Origin: Williamsia limnetica
GTDB lineage: Bacteria > Actinomycetota > Actinomycetes > Mycobacteriales > Mycobacteriaceae
Assembly (NCBI RefSeq): GCF_003217475.1
Contig: NZ_QJSP01000012.1
Span: 1 to 64,000, forward strand
Direction: 5' to 3'
DNA length: 64,000 bases
In this document: one piece after another, positions 20,365 through 64,000 of the stretch
Numbering within the stretch: the stretch's first letter is position 1
Layout of the letters: every line of letters begins with the position of its first letter
Notes under the pieces: generated by a model
Seen by the model: the letters and a program-made list of their open reading frames with translations, nothing else
Told to the model about the DNA's origin: nothing
The model's database searches: none
Made by a program: the position numbers and the translations under genes

Positions 20365-21228
20365 GTGAATGATCTGACCCAGGACGAGTTGCTCTACGCC
20401 TTGGAAAAGGCGATCCCGGAAATCATGGAAGACCACTACGCAGCCGCGTCACCGTGGAATCCGCATGATTGGGTGCCGTGGGCCGACGGCCGCAACTTCG
20501 CATTCCTGGGCGGGGAGGACTTCGATCCCGACCAGCCCCGGCCGTTGCCCGAGGACGTCACGTCGGCGTTGCTCGCGCTGCTGCTGACCAAGGACAACAT
20601 GCCGTCCTACCACCGGCTGATGGCCCAGAAGGCCTCGATCTTCGGTGCCTGGCAGGAGGTCATCGGCTCCTGGACCGCCGAGGACAACAGGCACGCCATC
20701 GCGCTGCGCGACTACCTGGTGGTCGCACGGCTCATGGACCCGGAGGTCGCGGAGACCCTGCGTCTGCATCACATGACCAAGGGCAAGCTGCAAACCCCGC
20801 GTTCGCTCACCGACTATCAGATCCTCGACGTCCTGGCGTTGTTGGCCGTTCATGAACTGCAGTGCGTCGCCTTCGAGGAGAAGCTCATCGCCGGGTCCGA
20901 CAGCGAGGTGCTCGAGGGCATCGTCAGCAGGATCCTGCACGACGATCGAGTCCAGGCCAAGACGTTCACCGCCTTCATCAACGCCGGGATCGACGCCAAC
21001 GTCACCGAAGCCCTCAAGTCGGTCGACAAAGCGTTGGCCGAACTGGAACTGATAGGCGCGGATGTGGAGAACTTCGGTCAACTGGACGCGATCGCGGAGT
21101 TCAACGCGGACGCTGCGGGGTTTGTTGCCCGCGCACTGGTCGAGGACCTGAAGCTGCAATCCCTCGATGGTCTCGACGAGGCCAGCGAAGCCGCCAGGCA
21201 ACGAGTGCTGGCCGCCGCGGGGCTGTAG
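20365..21228 (+). CDS. desA2: acyl-ACP desaturase-like protein (DesA2 type)
   Basis: A 287-residue protein of the soluble stearoyl-ACP desaturase family, placed after glyA as desA2 (Rv1094) is. Mycobacterial DesA2 has been linked to mycolic acid synthesis. The first diiron motif is recognisable as AEDNRHAIALRDY near residue 111. The second, normally DE-x-x-H, appears degenerate: the best candidate HDDRVQAKTF has Gln where His is expected. So metal binding may be incomplete, as has been discussed for DesA2. GTG 20365 follows TACGCT by 6 bases, a probable leaderless start. Confidence 0.83.
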   Translation: MNDLTQDELLYALEKAIPEIMEDHYAAASPWNPHDWVPWADGRNFAFLGGEDFDPDQPRPLPEDVTSALLALLLTKDNMPSYHRLMAQKASIFGAWQEVIGSWTAEDNRHAIALRDYLVVARLMDPEVAETLRLHHMTKGKLQTPRSLTDYQILDVLALLAVHELQCVAFEEKLIAGSDSEVLEGIVSRILHDDRVQAKTFTAFINAGIDANVTEALKSVDKALAELELIGADVENFGQLDAIAEFNADAAGFVARALVEDLKLQSLDGLDEASEAARQRVLAAAGL

Positions 21229-52279: not shown

Positions 52280-52600
52280 ATGACTGAGCAGACCAGAGTG
52301 GACCCTGAGGCGTTGCGGAAACTGGGCAACGCCTTTGGCCAGACAGCATCGTCAGTGGACATCGCCGCGACGGAGTTCGTCGACTGCGACTTCGGAGCGC
52401 ATATGGGCAGTCGTTACGGCACCCACTCGATGGACTACGCCGCAGGCGTCCTTGCGGTCGTGAGGTCGGTGAGCGCACTTTCGCAGTCGTCGCGAACGTT
52501 CGGCGATGCCCTGACCGCAGCGGCCGACACACTGTCGGACCAGGACTCGACGAACGCGACCGGGTTCGTCGGTGGCGATCCGGGGCGCGCCGATGGGTAA
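52280..52600 (+). CDS. small EspC/WXG-like protein (Rv3440c position)
   Basis: A 106-residue helical protein with two predicted helices separated near MGSRYGTHSMDY, a layout like the EspC (DUF2580) and WXG100-related type VII targets. There is no WxG turn; a C-terminal TLSDQDSTNATGF might hold a secretion-type tail. GGGAGGA 5 bases upstream supports ATG 52280. The next gene starts inside its last codons, so the two should be made together. Position equals Rv3440c. A type VII role is inferred from fold and nearness to ESX-4. Confidence 0.68.
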   Translation: MTEQTRVDPEALRKLGNAFGQTASSVDIAATEFVDCDFGAHMGSRYGTHSMDYAAGVLAVVRSVSALSQSSRTFGDALTAAADTLSDQDSTNATGFVGGDPGRADG

Positions 52601-54119
52601 TGCGCCTGCGCCATCGGTGAGTGCTCTCGATGAGGAATTGCTGGCGGCGCGCGAGGTTGCCAGGGGAAGCGTCTGCTTCTTCGACAATGTCGCGCCGCTG
52701 GCGCGGCAGGTGGGCATCGAGGCACTCCCGGCTTTCGAGGCGTTCAGGTCGCGATTCTCCGAAACCGAGGACATCAACACACATCGACTGCGTGCTGATG
52801 GGCTGATCCTGCAGAACGTGCACACCACCGCCGCAGCGCAGATCGCCTACCAGCACGAGCAGGAGGCGGTGCTCGTCGACTGCTGGCCAGACGGATCCGG
52901 AACCGTTGCCCGCCGACAGTTGCTGGCACACCTGCCCCGGGCCGACGCAGACCTGACGTTGCTGGGGGAGCTGGCATCCGGATTGCTCGTTGCCGCGGAC
53001 TGCATCGACATCGCACGCCTCGCCAAGTTCAGCGCGATCGGCACCATCGACGCGAACATCCTGCTGGGTATGCCGATCAGCGCGTGGACCGCCATCGTCG
53101 AATCGCTCGCCGCCGCTCCGCGAGAAGAATTGCGTGCGGCGATCACCGCGGCGGTCGACCTGTTCACCTGTGCGGTGAACACCTGTGATCAGGCGGTCGA
53201 GGCGGTTCTGGTCGGAGTCTGCACGGGTCTGCAGGGGGTCGACACCGCCCCGTACCCGAGCGGTCAGCAGAGCCCGTGCGCTCCGCCTCCCTGCCCTGAG
53301 GTGGCTCCCGGTCCCGTGTGTGCCGACAGCGGCCCCGATGTGCCGGGTGCATCCGGTGGGTCTGGAGCGTCGGGCGGATCATCCTCGAGCAGCGGTGTGC
53401 CGACGGGGACGGTGAGCACTGCGTCAGCGACTCCGCTGGCGCCCGCCACTCCTCCTGCTCCGATTTTCGAATCCCGGCCAGCGTCGGTGATAGCGTCCGG
53501 ATCCGGTGCTGTCACAGGTCAATTCGCTGCTTCCTACGCTTCGTCACCCGGTGGCGCCGAGCTCACCGGCATCTTGGCCCCGCTGGCCGGAGCGATCGGC
53601 CAGGTGCTGACCGGAGCGATGATCGGGATCGTCGAAGCCGTGGCGTCCGCTCACTCCGACATCCAGGGTGAACCGCCGGCCCACGCAGACCCCGGCGCCT
53701 CACCACCCGCTGGGCCCCCGGATGAGGAATCGGGTACGCCGAAAGAGCGGGCGACACCGGGGGAGACGGCGACGCCGGGGCCGAACGGACCTGCGGACCG
53801 AGCATCCGATGACTGCCCATCGGAGTCGGAGGGGTCGGGTGATCCTGTCGCGATCGGTCCGGCCGATGCAACAGCACCCACGGGGAACCCGGCCGTGGTG
53901 CGGGATCCGCCGCCCGTTGCGCAGGCGCCGCCCGGTGCCGGGGATTGTCCGGTGCCGCTGGGTTCTCCGGGAACTGCTCCCGGCGGGCCGGCCCCGACTC
54001 CACACCCGGCGCGACTGTCGGAGCCGGAGCCGGGCACGCAGGTCGCGCCACAGGCCGCCGACCAAGGCCAGCCGGCACCGGGAGACGAAGGTGTTCTGGC
54101 CCTGGCCGGTGACCAATGA
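52593..54119 (+). CDS. large Ala/Pro-rich protein, type VII-linked (Rv3439c position)
   Basis: A 508-residue protein starting at ATG 52593, overlapping the preceding stop by 8 bases. Residues about 1-215 are helical with a cysteine set (SVCFFD, VDCWPDG, ADCIDI, FTCAVNTCDQ, GVCTG). The middle is Cys/Pro-rich, then Ser/Gly/Thr-rich; a hydrophobic stretch GILAPLAGAIGQVLTGAMIG near 330 could span or insert into a membrane; the tail is Pro/Ala/Gly-rich and low in complexity. It corresponds in place and character to the Ala/Pro-rich Rv3439c. It may be a secreted or surface partner of the 52280 protein; no enzyme motif is seen. Confidence 0.7.
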   Translation: MGNAPAPSVSALDEELLAAREVARGSVCFFDNVAPLARQVGIEALPAFEAFRSRFSETEDINTHRLRADGLILQNVHTTAAAQIAYQHEQEAVLVDCWPDGSGTVARRQLLAHLPRADADLTLLGELASGLLVAADCIDIARLAKFSAIGTIDANILLGMPISAWTAIVESLAAAPREELRAAITAAVDLFTCAVNTCDQAVEAVLVGVCTGLQGVDTAPYPSGQQSPCAPPPCPEVAPGPVCADSGPDVPGASGGSGASGGSSSSSGVPTGTVSTASATPLAPATPPAPIFESRPASVIASGSGAVTGQFAASYASSPGGAELTGILAPLAGAIGQVLTGAMIGIVEAVASAHSDIQGEPPAHADPGASPPAGPPDEESGTPKERATPGETATPGPNGPADRASDDCPSESEGSGDPVAIGPADATAPTGNPAVVRDPPPVAQAPPGAGDCPVPLGSPGTAPGGPAPTPHPARLSEPEPGTQVAPQAADQGQPAPGDEGVLALAGDQ

Positions 54120-54520: not shown

Positions 54521-55378
54521 CTACTTCCGCAGTAGTCGGGTCAGCGGATCGATCAGATCTTCTGCGCCCGGGGGAAGTGCGTCGGGGTCCACGGTCAGGA
54601 GCTTGCCGAGTCCGGCATCGGGGTCACTGAACGGGGCGTACTTGCTGTCGTCGGTCAGCTGATGGAGCAGGAACCCGGTCAGCACACCTCGGCTGATCTT
54701 CTGGGTCTTCCTGTCGTTGCCGCCCGCGCCGAGCCTGGACCGCACACTGAAACCCTCGGCAAGACCTCGATTCTCGGTTCGCGGCGCCATCCGGAGGACG
54801 GCAGGATCGGAGCCGAGGGCGCGCCGCAATGCGAGCGCGTTGGATGTCATCGACTCCAGCTCGCCCGGCGCGACGATGATCAGAGCAGGAATCGTGACCT
54901 CACGCGCAGCGGGCAGGACCGCGCTGCTGGTCGGCGCCGGGAAGAGTGCGGCCAGTGCTTTCGCCCGACGGCTCCGCGCAGCGGCCAGAGTTGCGGCCGA
55001 CGCGCCGAAACCGTGGCCGGCCAGACCCAGTCGATCTTTGTGCACGGTGATGTTGCCGGCGCCCAGCCGGACCTCGCTGATCACGGACAACGTCGTCTCG
55101 AGGTCGGCGGCCAGCCCCTGATCCGACGCCAACAGGCCCTTCTCGGTGGTCGGAGCTGCGGCGACAATGCCCCACGACGCCAGATGCGCCAGGGTCTTGT
55201 AGTACTGCTTGGCGCCCGTGAGCCAGCCGTGGCCGAATGCGATCCCGGGGAGGTCTTTCCCTTCGGCGGGGGTGTAGAGGGTGCCGGGTAGTCCGACGAT
55301 CGCCATGTCGCCGCGCAGAACCTTGTGCGGTCCGGTCTTGGACAGCTGCGAAAGGAGCTTCTTGGGGTTGGCCACCAT
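54521..55378 (-). CDS. alpha/beta-hydrolase-fold protein with altered nucleophile motif
   Basis: A 285-residue protein with the chlorophyllase/dienelactone-hydrolase-like fold: VGLPGTLYTPAEGKDLPG, IAFGHGWLTGAKQYY and the nucleophile-elbow region RLGLAGHGFGASAATLAA near residue 127. The elbow reads G-H-G-F-G, so the usual Ser of G-x-S-x-G is replaced by Gly; a Ser follows two residues later. It may be non-catalytic or use another residue. No signal peptide is present. It is convergent with the small acidic protein (13 bases between). Confidence 0.78.
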   Translation of the reverse strand: MVANPKKLLSQLSKTGPHKVLRGDMAIVGLPGTLYTPAEGKDLPGIAFGHGWLTGAKQYYKTLAHLASWGIVAAAPTTEKGLLASDQGLAADLETTLSVISEVRLGAGNITVHKDRLGLAGHGFGASAATLAAARSRRAKALAALFPAPTSSAVLPAAREVTIPALIIVAPGELESMTSNALALRRALGSDPAVLRMAPRTENRGLAEGFSVRSRLGAGGNDRKTQKISRGVLTGFLLHQLTDDSKYAPFSDPDAGLGKLLTVDPDALPPGAEDLIDPLTRLLRK

Positions 55379-55495: not shown

Positions 55496-56908
55496 ATGGA
55501 TGCCAATGAGATCCGCAGTGCCTACCTCTCGCTGATGGCCGAACGCGGCCACACCGTGATTCCCCGGGCGCCGCTCGTGCCCAAAGACGACCCCACCACG
55601 CTGTTCACGGGCAGCGGGATGCAGCCGCTTCTCAAGTATCTGCTCGGTGCCGAACACCCCTCGGGAAAGAGGCTCGCCGACTCGCAAACCTGCCTGCGGT
55701 CCCAGGACATCGAAGAGGTCGGCGACAACCGGCACACCACGTTCTTCGAGATGCTCGGGAACTGGAGTCTCGGTGATTACTTCAAGAGCGAGCAGATCCC
55801 GCTGTTCTGGCATTTCCTCACCGAGGTCGTCGGCCTCGACCCCAATCGCATCTACGTCACCGTGTTCTCGGGTGATCCCGCGAACGGCATCCCGCGCGAT
55901 GACGAAAGCGCCGACATCTGGACCGAGTTGTTCACCAAGGCGGGGGTTTCCGCCGATCGCGTGGTGTTGCTGACCGAAGAGCACGGCAACGAGGTCGGCA
56001 ACCAGGGCGCCCGGATCGCGTATTACAGCGACAAGAACTGGTGGTCGCGGTCGGGCGGGCCCGACACGATGCCCGTCGGCGACCCAGGTGGGCCCGACAG
56101 CGAGGTCTTCTACTACTTCCCACAGGTCGAACACGACACCGCGTTCGGTAAGTACCCACACCAGAACTCCGACGGTGGGCAGTACATGGAAATCGGCAAC
56201 TCGGTCTTCATGCAATACGCCAAGACGGTGGAGGGCTTTGCCGAATTGCCCAAACTGAACGTCGATTACGGCGGCGGGCTCGAACGTATCGCGGCCGCAT
56301 CCATCGACAGTCCCGACGTGTACCGGATCAGCCTGCTGTGGCCGATCGTGCAGAAGATCGAGGAACTGTCGGGGGTCGGCTACGACGACAACACCGTGGC
56401 GATGCGCGTCATCGCAGACCACATCCGTGGAGCGGTCTTCCTCGCGGTGGACGGCGTGGTGCCGTCGAACAAGGAACAGGGTTACGTGATGCGCCGCCTG
56501 GTGCGCCGGGCCATCCGGTTCGCCCACCAGCTCGGGGTCCAGGACAATCTGCTGACGCAGCTCGTGCCGGTTGTCGCCGATCTCTACACCGAGGCCTATC
56601 CAGAGGTCGCCGAGCGCCGCGAGACCGTGATCGCCGTGCTGGAGAAGGAAGAACGATCCTTCCGTCGAACCCTCGGTAAGGGTTTGCGAGAACTCAAGCG
56701 CCTCGGTAAGACCGGCGAGACGGTGACCGGTAAGGATTTGTTCAAGTTGTCCGACACCTTCGGCTTCCCGGTCGAATTGTCCGCCGAAGAAGCCGTGACC
56801 CGCGGGATGCCGATGACCGTGAACTGGCGGGCGGAGTTCGACGGGGAGATCGAGGCGCAGCGTGCCCGTTCGCAGGCGTCAACCAAGCTCGGAGCCACCG
56901 TCGACTGA
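55496..56908 (+). CDS. short alanyl-tRNA synthetase homologue without editing and C-Ala domains
   Basis: A 470-residue class II synthetase homologue. The catalytic core is complete: LFTGSGMQPLLKYLLG (motif 1 area), TTFFEMLGNWSLGDYF (motif 2) and VDYGGGLERIAA (motif 3), followed by the tRNA-recognition helices MRVIADHIRGAVFLAVDGV and GYVMRRLVRRAIRFAHQLG. It then stops, just after FGFPVELSAEEAV, where ordinary AlaRS (about 880 residues) continues into editing and C-Ala domains. The usual GPCGPCTE is replaced by VGDPGGPDSEVFYYF, a variant I associate with short AlaRS of candidate-phylum bacteria. The gene seems whole, not truncated by mutation. Its 3' end overlaps the DUF2254 gene by 30 bases. 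Confidence 0.85.
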   Translation: MDANEIRSAYLSLMAERGHTVIPRAPLVPKDDPTTLFTGSGMQPLLKYLLGAEHPSGKRLADSQTCLRSQDIEEVGDNRHTTFFEMLGNWSLGDYFKSEQIPLFWHFLTEVVGLDPNRIYVTVFSGDPANGIPRDDESADIWTELFTKAGVSADRVVLLTEEHGNEVGNQGARIAYYSDKNWWSRSGGPDTMPVGDPGGPDSEVFYYFPQVEHDTAFGKYPHQNSDGGQYMEIGNSVFMQYAKTVEGFAELPKLNVDYGGGLERIAAASIDSPDVYRISLLWPIVQKIEELSGVGYDDNTVAMRVIADHIRGAVFLAVDGVVPSNKEQGYVMRRLVRRAIRFAHQLGVQDNLLTQLVPVVADLYTEAYPEVAERRETVIAVLEKEERSFRRTLGKGLRELKRLGKTGETVTGKDLFKLSDTFGFPVELSAEEAVTRGMPMTVNWRAEFDGEIEAQRARSQASTKLGATVD

Positions 56909-58306
56909 GTGAGGGCCGCCGGGAGGCTCGGGGGCGTCCGGCTGCCCCGGGGCGACCCGGGGTGACTGGCCGCCCGACTCGGAACCGAGACCCTGCGGAT
57001 CGGCGACGCTCGCGAGGCGGATGTCCAGCTCGCTCTTCCACTCCCGTCGCACCTGCTGGTCGAGTGCTTCGAGCCGCTCGACCAGCGGAGGATGTTGCGT
57101 AGGTGGCGTGCTGGCCTGCAACGTGAGCAGAAGCGACCGCAGTCTGCGCTGCACCTGTGTCGAATTGGTGCTGAAGTGGCGGATCTCGTCGGTGGCGAGC
57201 GAGACATAGTCGTTCCACGTCCGCCGGTAGCCGTGCACCCGCGACATCATCTCCAATGTCCGGTCGCTACGTACCCGCGGAGCGAGAAGAAGCAGCAGGT
57301 CTTCGAGATGGTCGATGGCCTGGACGGCGCGCCCCGGGTCGTTGATGGCGGGCGACAGGGCTTTGAGGGCGACGTCCACGATGGCCTGCAAGGCGGCCGA
57401 CGGACTGACCGCCGGGCGGTGCGCATCGCCGAAACACATGGTTGCCAGCAATTGTCTCTGCCTGAGCTCGCTCAGGTCGTCGGGGAGGCCGTACACCGCG
57501 AACAACGGGGCCTCGTAGGCCACGAAGTCTCCGATGCGGGGCAGGACGTCGAGCTGTACCCCCCACCGTGTCCCGAGCCGTTGCAACTGAGGCAGATTGA
57601 TGGCCACGAGAACCCGGCCCTTGGACGGCAGCCGGCGCAGTCGGACGAGGGTCATCGGGGCATCGGGATCGACGATGCCGTAGGAGGGGGTCGGTGCCGC
57701 GACGCTCGCAGCGCCCGGGTCCGAGGACGCGTCGATGAACGTCCGTTTGATCGTCTTGTGACCTTCGTCGGCAATCCAGCTGAGCAACCTGGTGGAGTTG
57801 AGTATCCGACCCACCTTGCTGACGAGCACCACGAACATGATCGCGCTGGCGAAGGCGAGGAAGAGCGCGAACGCACCCGACGCGATGGGCGCCCTGTTGT
57901 CTTGAGATGCCATGTCCGAGGCGACGATCAGCGAATAGACGAAGGTCGCGAGGAATAGTCCGTTCGACCACCGCATGATCGGATCCTGCTGCAGGACAGG
58001 GACCACCCGAACCGATACCTGGGTCGCACCGAATTGCATGGCCAGCGTCGTCGCCGTGAAGACCAGACCGGTCAGGGTGATCATCCCGCCGGCGATCGCG
58101 CTGAGCAGGGTGGCCATGGTTCCGGTGTCGACGGCATCGGAGGCCGTCGCCTCGTCGATGGCGCCGAAGACCCCCGTCATCGCCACAGCCAGGAAGATCA
58201 GAAGCACTGGCAGCCGCCAGATTCGCACGGAGCCCAGCCGACGTCGGGTGCGGCGCCACCGCACCCGATCGCTGATGAGCCGTCCGAGATCGGCGAGCAC
58301 GCCCAT
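56879..58306 (-). CDS. DUF2254 membrane protein
   Basis: A 475-residue protein of DUF2254 with about four N-terminal transmembrane helices (near residues 30-50, 67-90, 112-130 and 140-165) and a cytoplasmic C-terminal domain of about 290 residues containing LSPAINDPGRAVQAIDHLEDLL, a family landmark. A disordered Pro/Ser/Gly tail ends the protein. It is 9 bases from the upstream aminoacyltransferase gene on the same strand, so probably one transcript. Function unknown. Confidence 0.85.
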   Translation of the reverse strand: MGVLADLGRLISDRVRWRRTRRRLGSVRIWRLPVLLIFLAVAMTGVFGAIDEATASDAVDTGTMATLLSAIAGGMITLTGLVFTATTLAMQFGATQVSVRVVPVLQQDPIMRWSNGLFLATFVYSLIVASDMASQDNRAPIASGAFALFLAFASAIMFVVLVSKVGRILNSTRLLSWIADEGHKTIKRTFIDASSDPGAASVAAPTPSYGIVDPDAPMTLVRLRRLPSKGRVLVAINLPQLQRLGTRWGVQLDVLPRIGDFVAYEAPLFAVYGLPDDLSELRQRQLLATMCFGDAHRPAVSPSAALQAIVDVALKALSPAINDPGRAVQAIDHLEDLLLLLAPRVRSDRTLEMMSRVHGYRRTWNDYVSLATDEIRHFSTNSTQVQRRLRSLLLTLQASTPPTQHPPLVERLEALDQQVRREWKSELDIRLASVADPQGLGSESGGQSPRVAPGQPDAPEPPGGPHSVDGGSELG

Positions 58307-58315
58307 CGTTGGAGG

Positions 58316-60448
58316 CTACTCCCTGGTCGTGGCGAGTTTGATCATCTGACCGGCGGTGGCGTTGGGCAGGTAGGCGCGGGTGAGGGCGACACCGATGCGC
58401 GGTAGGTCACCTTCGTCCCGGAAGCACATGTACACAGGTTCGTACCGGGGCTGGAACTTCATCTTGAACGCGTGCAGGGACCGGAAGCCGTAGAACGGTT
58501 CCATCGCCGCACCCATCATGTCGAGCATTCGGTCCATCGCGACGACCTCGCTGGTGTCGTCCTCGGCCCGCGCGAGCGGTGCCCCGGACAGCGAGAGGAT
58601 CTCGGCACCTTCGGCTTTGAAGGCGAGGGCCGAGCTGGCGATGAGAAACTCGATACACGGTCGGAAACCGTCATCGCGACGGCGCATCACATCGAGCGTC
58701 CAGCCACGCATGGTGTCCCCGCTGCCGAAGACAGGGAGCCACGACAACACGCCGTGGACCGACCCGGTGTCGTCGATGGCCAGGGCCACCCGCACCTCGG
58801 GGTCGAGTGCCTCTTCGACACTGCCGAGTGTGAAACCCATCTCGGGGAGTCCTTTGTCCCCGACCCACTCCTCGGAGATCGCCCGAACCTGGGCCACCAC
58901 GGCGAAGGGTTCGTCCTTCAATGTCGTGAGTTTGAAGGCGATGCCCTCTTTCTTCGCCCGGTTGAGGGCCGACCGGATGTCTTGCCAGGGCTTGCCTTTG
59001 AAGGCCAGCGTCGGCAGGTCGATGATGGTGTCCTCGGCGATCTGCAGGGTTCGCCAGCCCATGCCGCGGGCGATGGAAGCAGTGGCCTCACTGACGGAGA
59101 ACCAGCACGGGATCCGAGCGCTGTTGTCGGCCATGTCGGTGAACTCGCGGATGGTCTCCTCGAGTTTCTCAGGTGCGCAGACGGGATCGGCCAACGCGAG
59201 CACAGTGCCTGCGGGACGCTGATAGCCGATGACGCCTTCGCCGTCCTTGGTGAACGCGTATTGGTTGTTCTCCCACGTGATCATCCAGCTCATGGTGCTA
59301 CCGCCGTACTTCTTCAGCAGGCTGCGGACCTGCTCGGCGGGATTGGATCCACCCATGCCCGCCATGGCTTTCCGGCTGTTCAGCGGGACCGTGAACGCAT
59401 ATCGGCCACCGAACAACAGGGTCAGCTCCACGATCCAGAGCAGTCCGGTACCGACGGTGACCGCGCCCTTGCCCTCGAAACTCGAGGTGATGACGGCGAT
59501 GAGTACGAGCACCAACAGAGCGATGTACAGCACCCCGTAGACGACGGTGACCCACCAGGCCCACTTGCGGCCTCGGCGTAGTTGATCGGCGATGAGCAGC
59601 ACGATCAGGACGCTGACTATCGAACCCCAGCTGAGGCTGTCGTTCGAGTCCGTCGGCCCGAACGGTCCGTCGCCGGGGAAGACGGCGACCGCGATGTTGA
59701 CGACTCCGATGAGCACCAGTCCGAGGAAGCTGATCATCCGGATTTCTTGGCGGGTTCGGGGCAGCACGCCCGACTCGCTCTTGCTGAAGAACCGTTCGCC
59801 GATGATCAACATGACCACGACGGCGATCAGGTGGGTCACGTCCGCGAGCTTGCCCTCGAAGAGGAACGAGATGGCCACGTAGGCAAGGAGAACGGCTCGC
59901 ACTCGTAGCCGCCATGGCGACTTGAGCGTGGCGCTTGCGGCGGCGATCGCCGCGACGATGGCAGTCGTGACGCCCACATCCCGCACTTCTGCGAGGTGAT
60001 CGACCCATGCCCAGCTGGTCGGTCGGAAGACGGCGATGAACGCAATTGCGCCGAGCACGCCGATGAGTTGTCCGGCGATCGTGACGAACGCGACCCGGAC
60101 GGTGCCCAGAAGCCATTCACTCCAGCCCACGAAGATCGCGAAGAGCAGTGTGATGAAGAGATAGCTCAGCGGGCTGGACTTGAACAGCATGCCCGACAGC
60201 GGGGTCCACCACTTGCTCTCCGCCAGCGGTGGGTAGCCGTAGGCGATGTCGTTGAACCAGCTCTTGTCGCCGACTGTCTCCCACAGCGCGCCGGTGACGA
60301 TGCCGATGACGATGATCGCCACGACGACGGTGGTCGTGAACGGCACCTTGCGGGCCGTCCAGGTGATGGCGCCGAGAACCTTGGCGAGGGGCGATGGGGC
60401 CGCCGGCTCGGACGGGGGTGCCTCGCTGGGGATGTCGGTCGTGCTCAT
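58316..60448 (-). CDS. MprF-type membrane protein with DUF2156 aminoacyl-tRNA-dependent transferase domain
   Basis: A 710-residue protein. The first 370 residues hold roughly nine to ten transmembrane helices; the C-terminal 330 residues are the DUF2156 GNAT-like domain of phosphatidylglycerol aminoacyltransferases (SMSWMITWENNQYAFT... VGYQR-like, FSVSEATASIARGMGW, LNRAKKEGI, RPCIEFLIASSALAFKAEGAEILSLSGAPLA, FYGFRSLHAFKMKFQPRYEP). No fused lysyl-tRNA synthetase, unlike mycobacterial LysX. The amino acid used cannot be read; Ala or Lys are the usual choices. It is followed by the DUF2254 gene and preceded by an esterase gene on the same strand. Confidence 0.85.
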   Translation of the reverse strand: MSTTDIPSEAPPSEPAAPSPLAKVLGAITWTARKVPFTTTVVVAIIVIGIVTGALWETVGDKSWFNDIAYGYPPLAESKWWTPLSGMLFKSSPLSYLFITLLFAIFVGWSEWLLGTVRVAFVTIAGQLIGVLGAIAFIAVFRPTSWAWVDHLAEVRDVGVTTAIVAAIAAASATLKSPWRLRVRAVLLAYVAISFLFEGKLADVTHLIAVVVMLIIGERFFSKSESGVLPRTRQEIRMISFLGLVLIGVVNIAVAVFPGDGPFGPTDSNDSLSWGSIVSVLIVLLIADQLRRGRKWAWWVTVVYGVLYIALLVLVLIAVITSSFEGKGAVTVGTGLLWIVELTLLFGGRYAFTVPLNSRKAMAGMGGSNPAEQVRSLLKKYGGSTMSWMITWENNQYAFTKDGEGVIGYQRPAGTVLALADPVCAPEKLEETIREFTDMADNSARIPCWFSVSEATASIARGMGWRTLQIAEDTIIDLPTLAFKGKPWQDIRSALNRAKKEGIAFKLTTLKDEPFAVVAQVRAISEEWVGDKGLPEMGFTLGSVEEALDPEVRVALAIDDTGSVHGVLSWLPVFGSGDTMRGWTLDVMRRRDDGFRPCIEFLIASSALAFKAEGAEILSLSGAPLARAEDDTSEVVAMDRMLDMMGAAMEPFYGFRSLHAFKMKFQPRYEPVYMCFRDEGDLPRIGVALTRAYLPNATAGQMIKLATTRE

Positions 60449-60555
60449 CGGCGCCTTTCGGTGGTTACAGACGGGCGAGCTGTGGAACTCGCTGTGCGGT
60501 GTGAGTGTGCGAGCGGTGTGCGGAATGTCGCTCTGTGTGCGAATTATTCCCTAGT

Positions 60556-61842
60556 TCACGGCAAACCCAGGCGTTTGCCGAGCCAGGGCATCTCGAGTTT
60601 GAGTCCGGCCGACCAGACAGCGAACGAATGCCCGCCCGGGACGGTGTCGAAATGGACGTCCATCCCGGCGGCCTGGGCTGCCTGGAACACCTGGGTGAGG
60701 CCGGGCCGGTACTCGGCGTCGTCCTTGCCGACGACGAACGCGCCTGCGACCCCGGGGAACTGCTTCGTCTTCATGATGTCCATCGGATTGACGGCGGTGA
60801 ACTTCGCGGAGTCGCCACCGAAGGCCTGGTCGACGGTGCGTTTGCGATCACCGAGCGTCGGCTCGAGCTGCCCGGACATGTCGAGGAACGTCGGGTAGAT
60901 CTCGGGGTAATTGGTGGTCATCTGCAGCGAACAGGTGCCGCCGTAGGAGAGGCCGCCGATGGCCCAGGCCTTGGGGTCGGAGTCGACCTGCAGGTTCTGC
61001 TTGGTCCAGTCCGGGACATCTTTGGCGAGGTAGGTGGCCACGTTGCCCAGTTTCGAGTCCATACAGAGTGGGTTGGCGAGCTCGTCGCCGGTGGCGTCGG
61101 CGACCACCACGACAGGGGACAGACCTTCGTTGGCGGCGGCGTACTGGTCCATGGTCTGGGTCAGTCGACCGCCCACGAGCCAGTCTTCGGGGGCACCGGG
61201 CTGTCCGGCCATCAGGACCAGCACCGGGAGCAGGGGACGCGGTTCGGTGAAGTATGCGGGCGGCAGGTAGATCTTCGCGGGTCTGGCGTTGAAGTTCGAG
61301 GTGGCGCCGGGGATCGGTGCGGTGATGACGGCGCCCTCACCGGGAAGGCTGCTCGGCTTCTTCCACTGGCCCAGCTCGACGGTCTTGATGTCGTTGTTGC
61401 GGGCTTCGTCGAGGGAGATCGTCTTGACGTTGTTGATCCCGACCACCGACCCGACTGTCGGATATTCGCTGAAGTGGTCGTTGATCTGCGAGAAGGCCAT
61501 GGTCACCGCGAACACGGTGGCCAGCACAGTGACGATCCGGCCGAGGACGCCGCTCCCTCGGATGAGCCTGGGAACGAGGAGCAGGACCGCGAACACCGCG
61601 AGACCGCCCCAGACGTAACAGTTCAGCGGGATCGGGTCGGCGAACAGCTTCCACACGTCTTCGATGAGCCATTTGGCCAGCACCACCAGAAGTATCGAGA
61701 CAACGGCCGCGAGAGGCACCACGTACAGCAGATAGACCTTCTGGAACAGCAGGATCAGCCATGCCAGTCCCAGGATCCCCAAGATCAAGATGGTCCACGG
61801 CAACCAGCCGTCGAGCACCGATGTTTCCCACAGCCAGTTCAT
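60556..61842 (-). CDS. membrane-anchored esterase, esterase D / mycolyltransferase-like fold
   Basis: A 428-residue protein. Four hydrophobic helices occupy residues 13-130; the rest faces outside and has an esterase-D/antigen-85-like alpha/beta hydrolase domain: LVLMAGQPGAPEDW, the nucleophile in GGLSYGGTCSLQM near 300, FLDMSGQLEPTLGDR, and VVGKDDAEYRP and PGGHSFAVW for the acid and the histidine. It precedes the MprF-type gene on the same strand with about 107 bases between. Plausible substrates are aminoacyl or mycolyl esters; unproven. Confidence 0.85.
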   Translation of the reverse strand: MNWLWETSVLDGWLPWTILILGILGLAWLILLFQKVYLLYVVPLAAVVSILLVVLAKWLIEDVWKLFADPIPLNCYVWGGLAVFAVLLLVPRLIRGSGVLGRIVTVLATVFAVTMAFSQINDHFSEYPTVGSVVGINNVKTISLDEARNNDIKTVELGQWKKPSSLPGEGAVITAPIPGATSNFNARPAKIYLPPAYFTEPRPLLPVLVLMAGQPGAPEDWLVGGRLTQTMDQYAAANEGLSPVVVVADATGDELANPLCMDSKLGNVATYLAKDVPDWTKQNLQVDSDPKAWAIGGLSYGGTCSLQMTTNYPEIYPTFLDMSGQLEPTLGDRKRTVDQAFGGDSAKFTAVNPMDIMKTKQFPGVAGAFVVGKDDAEYRPGLTQVFQAAQAAGMDVHFDTVPGGHSFAVWSAGLKLEMPWLGKRLGLP

Positions 61843-62238: not shown

Positions 62239-64000
62239 ATGTGTGGAATCGTCGGATACGTGGGCAAACGCGATGCTCTCGAGATTGTTGTCGAGGCACT
62301 GCGACGGATGGAGTACCGCGGGTACGACTCGGCCGGCGTCGCCATCCTCGACGGGACCGGACACACCGCGGTGGAGAAGAAGGCCGGGCGGCTCGAGAAC
62401 CTGGACAAGGAACTCGCCACCCTGGGCCGCGACGCCTTCGTCGGCACCACCGGCATGGGACATACCCGTTGGGCCACCCACGGCCGTCCGACCGACCGCA
62501 ACGCCCATCCCCACACCAGCATCGACGGCAAGATCGCCGTCGTCCACAACGGGATCATCGAGAACTTCGCCGTCCTGCGCAGCGAGGTCGAGAAGGCCGG
62601 TATCGAGTTCAGCTCCGACACCGACACCGAGGTCGCGGTCCACCTGATGGCACTGCAGTACGCGTCGGGCCCGACCGCCGGTGACTTCGTCGCGAGTGCG
62701 TATGCGGTGCTGGGCCGGCTCGAAGGTGCGTTCACGCTGGTCTTCACCCATGCCGATCACGCGGACACGATCGTCGCCGCCCGTCGCTCGACACCGCTGG
62801 TCGTCGGGGTGGGGGTGAACGAGATGTTCGTCGGTTCCGATGTCGCCGCGTTCATCGAACACACCCGAGAAGCGGTCGAACTCGGGCAGGACCAGGTGGT
62901 GGTCATCACTGCCGATACGTACGAGATCACCGACTTCACCGGCAACACGGAGCCCGGCAGGCCGTTTCACATCGACTGGGATCTCGCCGCCGCGGAAAAG
63001 GGTGGTTACGACTACTTCATGCTCAAGGAGATCGCCGAGCAGCCGCAGGCGCTCGCCGACACCCTGCTCGGGCATTTCGAGAACGGTCGGATCATGCTCG
63101 ACGAGCAGCGTCTGACCGATGACGACCTGCGCGACATCGACAAGATCTTCGTCGTCGCATGTGGCACCGCCTACCATGCCGGTCTGCTGTCCAAATACGC
63201 CATCGAGCACTGGACGAGGCTTCCCGTCGAGGTCGAACTGGCCAGCGAGTTCCGGTATCGCGATCCCGTTCTGGATCGCTCGACCCTGGTCGTCGCCATC
63301 TCGCAGTCCGGTGAGACCGCGGACACCCTGGAAGCCGTGCGGCACGCGAAGGAGCAGAAAGCCCGCGTCCTGGCGATCTGCAACACCAACGGGGCGCAGA
63401 TACCGCGCGAGTCCGACGCGGTGCTCTACACCCACGCAGGGCCTGAGATCGGCGTTGCATCGACGAAGTGTTTCCTCGCGCAGATCACCGCGACCTATCT
63501 GGTCGGGCTCGCGCTCGCCCAGGCGCGCGGCACCAAGTACCCGGACGAGGTCGCCCGCGAGTTCGCGGCACTCGAGGCAATGCCTGCCGCCGTGGAGAAG
63601 GTGCTCGAGACGGTCGAACCGGTTCGGGAGCTGGCTCGCAGCCTGGCCGCCAGTCCCACCGTCCTGTTCCTCGGACGGCACGTGGGCTATCCGGTGGCGC
63701 TCGAGGGTGCACTCAAACTGAAAGAGCTGGCGTACATGCACGCCGAGGGATTCGCTGCAGGCGAGCTCAAGCACGGGCCCATCGCGCTGATCGAAGACAA
63801 CCTCCCGGTCATCATCGTCATGCCGTCACCCACCGGCCGCGCGGTGCTGCATTCGAAGATGGTCAGCAACATCCGTGAGATCCAGGCCCGTGGCGCCACC
63901 ACGATCGTCATCGCCGAGGACGGCGACGACACCGTGGTCGACGTGGCCGACCACCTGATCCGGATCCCGCAGGTGCCGACCCTGCTGCAGCCGCTGGTTT
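62239..64000 (+). CDS. glmS: glutamine-fructose-6-phosphate aminotransferase (isomerizing), 3' end outside the window
   Basis: The first 587 residues of GlmS, which makes glucosamine-6-phosphate for the cell wall; full enzymes are about 620 residues. The N-terminal glutaminase begins MCGIVGYVGKRDAL with nucleophile Cys2, then EYRGYDSAG and GHTRWATHG. The isomerase half shows FVVACGTAYHAG, ISQSGETADT, GVASTKCFLAQ and EGFAAGELKHGP. TACCCT lies 8 bases before ATG 62239, so the message may be leaderless; no glmS ribozyme is visible. Counterpart of Rv3436c. Confidence 0.97.
   Translation, partial: MCGIVGYVGKRDALEIVVEALRRMEYRGYDSAGVAILDGTGHTAVEKKAGRLENLDKELATLGRDAFVGTTGMGHTRWATHGRPTDRNAHPHTSIDGKIAVVHNGIIENFAVLRSEVEKAGIEFSSDTDTEVAVHLMALQYASGPTAGDFVASAYAVLGRLEGAFTLVFTHADHADTIVAARRSTPLVVGVGVNEMFVGSDVAAFIEHTREAVELGQDQVVVITADTYEITDFTGNTEPGRPFHIDWDLAAAEKGGYDYFMLKEIAEQPQALADTLLGHFENGRIMLDEQRLTDDDLRDIDKIFVVACGTAYHAGLLSKYAIEHWTRLPVEVELASEFRYRDPVLDRSTLVVAISQSGETADTLEAVRHAKEQKARVLAICNTNGAQIPRESDAVLYTHAGPEIGVASTKCFLAQITATYLVGLALAQARGTKYPDEVAREFAALEAMPAAVEKVLETVEPVRELARSLAASPTVLFLGRHVGYPVALEGALKLKELAYMHAEGFAAGELKHGPIALIEDNLPVIIVMPSPTGRAVLHSKMVSNIREIQARGATTIVIAEDGDDTVVDVADHLIRIPQVPTLLQPLV

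What the first reader, a model, noticed from the sequence alone, without database searches (positions are those of the whole stretch)
55496..61842. Possible aminoacyl-lipid system: short AlaRS, MprF-type transferase and esterase
A spare synthetase, a DUF2156 aminoacyl-tRNA-dependent transferase, a DUF2254 membrane protein and an outward-facing esterase lie together, separate from the surrounding conserved order around glmS. Mycobacterial LysX shows the principle: a LysRS domain feeds an MprF domain in one protein. Here a stand-alone AlaRS could feed Ala-tRNA to the transferase, and the esterase could remove or remodel the aminoacyl group, as aminoacyl-lipid hydrolases do elsewhere. This set could be a new Ala-lipid pathway. 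The synthetase is on the opposite strand, so co-expression is not shown.
Basis: inference. Interest (0 to 1): 0.74.

Follow-up and report, generated by a model that had tools for sequence, protein, structure and literature searches.

The report
Captured, editing-less AlaRS beside lipid transferase
Some soil actinobacteria carry a shortened second copy of the enzyme that loads alanine onto tRNA, apparently taken from Saccharibacteria and often kept beside an enzyme of the kind that moves amino acids from tRNA onto membrane lipids, which suggests a private alanine supply for modifying the membrane.

Summary
The genes are real. Window 55496-56908 is a 470-aa alanyl-tRNA synthetase (AlaRS) with catalytic and tRNA-recognition parts only; the genome also has a full-length AlaRS (891-aa frame). 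Beside it lie an MprF-type transferase (58316-60448) and a membrane-anchored esterase (60556-61842). DUF2254 is not core: 3 of the 8 congeneric genomes with the other genes have it.

The guessed link holds. A ninth congener has the empty site and lacks the set. Of 397 genomes of the order, 14 have the short AlaRS and all 14 have a transferase relative, against 63 of the other 383 (9 of the 14 are one genus). The AlaRS lies within about 6 kb of a transferase in 8 of 21 separate contexts, in differing orientations; chance predicts 0.1.

Clade a goes with the transferase (30 of 30 genomes). In clade b, 1 of 3 has it; the other two have the AlaRS in a metal-uptake and ribonucleotide-reductase cluster.

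Best reading: a dedicated Ala-tRNA supplier for lipid alanylation, a new variant of a known principle (LysX, VlmL/VlmA). Activity, lipid and amino acid are untested.

The parts
55496..56908 (+). Short AlaRS, 470 aa: class II catalytic domain plus tRNA-recognition domain, no editing or C-terminal domain
   Evidence: Pfam tRNA-synt_2c; aligns to the 441-aa E. coli AlaRS fragment 3hxu over residues 4-461; 64 positions conserved across short, CPR-type and canonical AlaRS; frame ends at 470 aa
58316..60448 (-). MprF-type aminoacyl-tRNA-dependent transferase, 710 aa: hydrophobic N-terminal part (residues about 32-348), LPG_synthase_C domain at 375-676
   Evidence: Pfam; PDB matches are MprF/LysPGS/AlaPGS synthase domains, best 4v36 E 3e-26; hydropathy
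60556..61842 (-). Esterase, 428 aa, with hydrophobic N-terminal segments and an alpha/beta-hydrolase domain with GLSYG; 107 bp upstream of the transferase on the same strand
   Evidence: Pfam PF00756; motif and hydropathy; at least 32 of 77 transferase-bearing genomes of the order have an esterase relative within 6 kb, 31 on the same strand
56879..58306 (-). DUF2254 membrane protein; lies between the two, but not part of the conserved set
   Evidence: Pfam; present in 3 of 8 congeneric genomes that carry the set
54521..55378 (-). Alpha/beta-hydrolase-like protein, 285 aa: left border of the inserted set, part of the older glmM-glmS neighbourhood
   Evidence: Next to glmS without the set in G004 (L202), also near glmS in G022 and G013
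62239..63999 (+). glmS (open at window end): right border of the inserted set
   Evidence: Sequence and ORF; synteny

Best explanation
The short AlaRS is a dedicated, editing-free supplier of aminoacyl-tRNA(Ala) for the MprF-type transferase, not a translation enzyme. It charges tRNA(Ala); the transferase, anchored in the membrane, takes the alanyl group from the tRNA and puts it on a membrane lipid (diacylglycerol or phosphatidylglycerol are the likeliest, by analogy with Corynebacterium AlaDAGS); the membrane-anchored esterase then removes or moves the alanyl group, probably outside the membrane. The gene was taken from a Saccharibacteria-like donor, and losing the editing region cost little because the product need not be safe for protein synthesis. 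Shown here: the gene family assignments, conserved active-site and tRNA-recognition positions, loss of the editing region, the tree, co-occurrence, and repeated neighbourhood. Inferred: charging activity, that the transferase uses that pool, the lipid, and the esterase's step.
For: Order level: short AlaRS in 14 of 397 genomes; all 14 have a transferase relative at E <= 1e-40, against 63 of 383 without it (Fisher 4e-11). Full-length ('710-type') transferase: 12 of 14 against 25 of 383. Within one genus of 17 genomes: 9 of 9 AlaRS-bearers have the 710-type, 1 of 8 others (p 4e-4). Class sample: the 6 further short-AlaRS genomes all have a full-length transferase. Neighbourhood: transferase within about 6 kb in 17 of 30 clade-a genomes, or 8 of 21 after thinning near-copies, against 0.1 expected; orders differ: tail to tail (Williamsia, Pseudonocardia), head to head (G168, G076, G710), AlaRS then transferase on one strand 60 bp apart (G154). 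G778 has AlaRS then esterase on one strand 47 bp apart. Gain or loss as a block: empty site in G004. Two captures, both without the editing region. Purifying selection. Principle in print: paralogous synthetases dedicated to MprF-like ligases, with LysRS, SerRS (VlmL) and AspRS named (passages of PMC2922099).
Against: 63 of 77 transferase-bearing genomes lack the short AlaRS, so the transferase does not need it. In 13 of 30 clade-a genomes the two are not neighbours. With the loose transferase cut-off the within-genus test is weak (9 of 9 against 5 of 8, p 0.08). The order-level p is not corrected for kinship (9 of 14 are one genus), and the 6-kb limit was set after seeing the loci. Two clade-b genomes (Brevibacterium, Brachybacterium) have no transferase at E <= 1e-10. 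In the window the AlaRS is on the opposite strand and the promoter scan found no more than chance. No activity data.
Confidence: 0.6

Rival explanations
1. Self-protection: the foreign AlaRS is a drug-tolerant spare that keeps translation going when an AlaRS inhibitor blocks the main enzyme.
For: Precedent: AcmD, an extra AlaRS in the ascamycin cluster, resists the product better than the usual AlaRS (passages of PMC12945691). The gene is foreign, patchy and mobile.
Against: A translation spare should keep editing, which both captured lineages lack; tie to the transferase is unexplained; no biosynthetic cluster seen among the neighbours scanned.
Confidence: 0.12
2. Metal-sparing spare: a synthetase without the zinc-linked parts, used under metal shortage.
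For: In Brevibacterium and Brachybacterium (clade b) it sits by nrdI, nrdE/F, an FMN reductase, a ZnuA/ABC-3 uptake system and a DtxR/MntR-type repressor. The canonical CGPC pair is GGPD in the window's protein.
Against: No Zur-like palindrome (consensus recalled) with up to 3 mismatches in the window, nor one better than shuffles upstream of any of 28 short AlaRS genes. Most clade-a proteins carry a Cys/His-rich CHQNCDCG stretch, odd for metal sparing. Does not explain the transferase.
Confidence: 0.08
3. Shared mobility only: AlaRS, transferase and esterase travel together in islands without working together.
For: The set sits as a block in one genus with an empty site in a congener.
Against: Gene order and orientation differ between contexts, both transferase types (710-type and the 842-939-aa type of G154, G085) are partners, and presence is tied even where the genes are far apart.
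Confidence: 0.12
4. The AlaRS acts on another acceptor (carrier protein, small molecule) or its transferase partner makes an alanylated natural product, not a lipid.
For: AlaRS-derived amino acid:carrier-protein ligases exist (table in PMC9437257); MprF-like VlmA uses a soluble acceptor (passage of PMC2922099).
Against: Residues matched to E. coli tRNA(Ala) G3:U70 recognition (N303, D400; numbers recalled) are kept in the window's protein and in 26 of 27 aligned at D420 and N325 or nearly so, lost only in G168; the transferase has a large hydrophobic N-terminal part.
Confidence: 0.08

Closest known systems
Corynebacterium AlaDAGS with PesT (Ala-DAG and Ala-PG synthesis)
   Same: MprF-type transferase with an esterase gene; a corynebacterial strain lacking pesT and alaDAGS makes neither lipid (passages of PMC10580965). 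The window's esterase-transferase order is common in the order.
   Different: No dedicated synthetase is named in the passages seen; the original paper (Smith 2015) was not held.
[quoted passage not shown]
   Same: A synthetase dedicated to a lipid transferase; in print for Lys-PG and Lys-DAG (passages).
   Different: LysRS, fused; here AlaRS, separate, from another phylum. The window's genome has its own LysX-like protein elsewhere (1178-aa frame, 25% to the transferase).
VlmL/VlmA (SerRS paralogue with MprF-like transferase)
   Same: Stand-alone synthetase paralogue feeding an MprF-like transferase (passage of PMC2922099).
   Different: Serine and a small molecule; not a membrane lipid.
AcmD/AcmF/AcmE of ascamycin
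   Same: Extra AlaRS, an alanyl transfer step and a secreted hydrolase (passages of PMC12945691).
   Different: There the transferase is a truncated AlaRS-like protein without key activation residues; here the truncated AlaRS keeps them and the transferase is MprF-type.
Saccharibacteria AlaRS (NF002436-like)
   Same: 57-62% identical to the window's AlaRS over the shared 464 residues.
   Different: 626-660 aa with an HxxxH-bearing tail; presumably their translation enzyme.

Membership tests
Alanyl-tRNA synthetase (catalytic core) | Class II core with conserved motif 2, alanine pocket and G3:U70-reading residues | tested here: met
   residue roles recalled
Full AlaRS of translation | Editing domain and C-terminal domain | tested here: not met
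   Frame ends at 470 aa; under NCBIfam cut-off; all 28 short AlaRSs read are 459-478 aa
MprF-type aminoacyl-lipid transferase | LPG_synthase_C domain | tested here: met
   247.6 bits against cut-off 27.5; PDB relatives
Bifunctional MprF (NF033480) | Full-length equivalog score, including flippase part | tested here: not met
   164 bits against 600, match only to the synthase part
LysX | Fused LysRS | tested here: not met
   710 aa, no tRNA-synthetase domain; 134.7 bits against 742
AlaDAGS/PesT pair | Transferase next to esterase | tested here: met
   60556-61842 and 60448-58316, same strand
AlaDAGS/PesT pair | Orthology to the C. glutamicum proteins | tested here: inconclusive
   No named C. 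glutamicum sequence was compared; G296 is unnamed
AlaDAGS/PesT pair | Makes Ala-DAG | not testable with these tools
   Needs lipid analysis
Dedicated synthetase for a GNAT/MprF ligase | Genomic tie to the ligase | tested here: met
Dedicated synthetase for a GNAT/MprF ligase | Its aminoacyl-tRNA is used by the ligase | not testable with these tools
   Needs biochemistry

The most novel reading that the evidence does not exclude
Actinobacteria have at least twice captured the translation AlaRS of Saccharibacteria (a group known, from recall, as epibionts of actinobacteria) and cut off its proofreading half, so that it became a lipid-dedicated alanine (perhaps also glycine and serine) charging enzyme whose mischarged products are harmless because they go to the membrane and not to the ribosome.
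Probability: 0.3. Interest if true: 0.78.

Novelty: new variant of a known kind. Interest (0 to 1): 0.62.

Why it matters
How MprF-type enzymes obtain aminoacyl-tRNA in competition with EF-Tu is described as open (passage of PMC9976931). A separate, editing-free AlaRS tied to such a transferase would be a natural, genetically separable answer for alanine: delete it and ask whether the lipid falls while translation stays normal. It also gives a case in which losing proofreading marks an enzyme's exit from translation, seen twice, with donors that are unusual for actinobacterial enzymes. It would extend the dedicated-synthetase list in print (LysRS, SerRS, AspRS) to AlaRS.

Tried and rejected
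DUF2254 as a fourth partner: rejected, present in 3 of 8 congeners with the set.

The hydrolase 54521-55378 as a partner: rejected, it stays next to glmS where the set is absent (G004).

A nucleic acid element or tRNA in the set: no tRNA in the window; one Rfam match, far away.

Promoter or terminator signals: no more than chance. Zur-like sites: none better than shuffles; the consensus was recalled.

Esterase as a mycolyltransferase: PDB matches were feruloyl/xylanase-type esterases; no antigen 85 chain was among the 13 rows. The transferase's N-terminal part as a rhomboid: only sub-threshold matches (21.4 bits against 27; 20.5 against 22.6 for L157).

Errors of mine found on the way: the rows of L005, L006 and L018 were read on the wrong strand, and L019 runs off its contig; these rows are not used. 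Searches failed to extract canonical AlaRSs because my motif was wrong; one search replaces them (L016 was still skipped, so 14 of 15 canonical rows are in the tree). The gene caller is home-made and gave some wrong frames; matches were read by tblastn instead.

Full report
Anatomy. The window's 55496-56908 (+) encodes a 470-aa AlaRS that covers only the class II catalytic and tRNA-recognition parts. On the other strand follow DUF2254 (56879-58306), an MprF-type transferase with the LPG_synthase_C domain (58316-60448) and an esterase (60556-61842). Esterase and transferase are on one strand, 107 bp apart. The genome also has an AlaRS in an 891-aa open frame and a LysX-like protein elsewhere. 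The nearest named relative is Williamsia soli C17, 97% identical in the AlaRS.

Is the set a unit? The genus sample holds nine genomes. Eight have the short AlaRS and the same eight have the transferase. The ninth, G004, has glmS next to the 54521-type hydrolase with nothing of the set between. In the eight, AlaRS, transferase and esterase sit between that hydrolase and glmS. DUF2254 is there in three of the eight only. In two Pseudonocardia genomes AlaRS (66-67%), transferase (51-53%) and esterase (41%) lie in the same arrangement at another site; G220 has the same three with an aminotransferase-like gene between; in G168 the AlaRS lies between esterase and transferase.

Co-occurrence. In 397 genomes drawn from the order the short-type AlaRS (E <= 1e-90) occurs in 14 and a transferase relative (E <= 1e-40) in 77, among them all 14. 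Nine of the 14 belong to one genus, so the raw Fisher value (4e-11) overstates the case. Inside that genus of 17 genomes, nine have the AlaRS and all nine have a full-length 710-type transferase, against one of the other eight (p 4e-4); at the looser cut-off it is nine of nine against five of eight (p 0.08). In 394 genomes of the class the AlaRS occurs in eight, six of them new; all six have a full-length transferase. An esterase relative (E <= 1e-30) occurs in 95 of 397 genomes and in 11 of the 14 (missing in G076, G093, G119). The transferase is much commoner than the AlaRS: 63 of 77 transferase-bearing genomes lack it.

Neighbourhood. I examined 30 clade-a genomes. A transferase lies within about 6 kb in 17: eight of the window's genus, two Pseudonocardia, G220, G168, G154, G085, G076, G710, G719. 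It does not in 13: G334, G419, G066, G093, G100 (AlaRS 0.1 kb from a contig end), G112, G119, G167, G423, G538, G616, G690, G778. In G419 the neighbour 1.1 kb off is LysX; in G778 an esterase follows the AlaRS on the same strand. Thinned to 21 contexts, 8 are near, against 0.1 expected (P about 3e-14); the 6-kb limit was set after seeing the loci. In both Rhodococcus-group genomes the AlaRS lies between cobN and cobG-like genes.

Origin. These are 626-660 aa long and carry HxxxH in the tail, while the actinobacterial ones stop at 459-478 aa. In a tree of 66 rows (28 short, 24 long, 14 canonical) the canonical actinobacterial AlaRSs are far off (100/100). The short ones fall in two clades: a, 25 rows (100/99), sister to a MAG titled only 'bacterium'; and b, Subtercola, Brevibacterium and Brachybacterium (100/96), beside other Saccharibacteria/Patescibacteria rows. 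Of the ten long rows in this part of the tree seven are titled Saccharibacteria and three only Patescibacteria or bacterium. One clade of all short forms is rejected (AU p 1e-5). So the editing region was lost at least twice, unless longer relatives were regained, which is unlikely.

Working state. Sixty-four positions are kept across short, long and canonical AlaRS, including the motif 2 stretch and the glycine-rich VDxGxGLxR stretch. The residues aligned with E. coli N303 and D400 (numbers and role recalled) are kept in the window's protein; G168 has lost both. Selection between the window and G005 is purifying.

Clade b. Subtercola has transferase relatives away from the AlaRS; Brevibacterium and Brachybacterium have none at E <= 1e-10. 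In these two the AlaRS lies by nrdI/nrdE/nrdF, an FMN reductase, a ZnuA-type uptake system and, in Brachybacterium, a DtxR-type repressor. The lipid reading is not claimed for them.

Mechanism proposed. Short AlaRS charges tRNA(Ala) without proofreading; the transferase takes the alanyl group to a membrane lipid; the esterase removes or relays it. The first two are chemistry known for their families; that they act together here is inferred. In Corynebacterium a strain without pesT and alaDAGS lacks Ala-DAG and Ala-PG (passages of PMC10580965). Both printed sources that would matter most (Smith 2015; Fields and Roy 2018) were not held.

What is known. The principle of synthetase paralogues dedicated to MprF-like ligases is in print with LysRS, SerRS and AspRS (passages of PMC2922099; PMC9437257). 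Ten text searches of the held open-access library showed me no dedicated AlaRS for lipid alanylation; 'DUF2156' with 'alanyl-tRNA synthetase' gave no paper. Most subscription papers are not in that library, so novelty is provisional. I file the case as a new variant of a known kind.

Noticed in passing
L165 9558-10463; L199 7959-8852: A PPK2-type polyphosphate kinase gene lies next to the short AlaRS in two unrelated genomes (G093, divergent; G710, overlapping downstream). It could recycle the AMP that charging releases.
   Followed up: no
L157 6171-7721; L200 10463-11848: Amino acid permease (PF00324) near the short AlaRS in two genomes.
   Followed up: no
L162 9270-10388: Alanine racemase next to the short AlaRS in G119.
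   Followed up: no
L161 7189-8589: The G168 AlaRS has lost the residues aligned with E. coli N303 and D400 though it sits in the three-gene set; its tRNA choice may be relaxed.
   Followed up: no
L047 6564-7973; L048 8418-9806: Clade-b short AlaRS sits by nrdI/nrdE/nrdF, FMN reductase and ZnuA-type uptake genes, with an integrase-core gene beside it in L048.
   Followed up: partly
A2 columns 222-230, most clade-a rows: A CHQNCDCG stretch looks like a metal site in most clade-a AlaRSs but is PHQNSDGG in Williamsia, Pseudonocardia and G220.
   Followed up: no
window 20683-20751 (-): Rfam ASdes sRNA match, 50.6 bits.
   Followed up: no
window 52280-54119: Small EspC-like ORF (below Pfam cut-off) overlapping a 515-aa Pro/Ala-rich ORF, fast-evolving between congeners (34-61% identity).
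   Followed up: no
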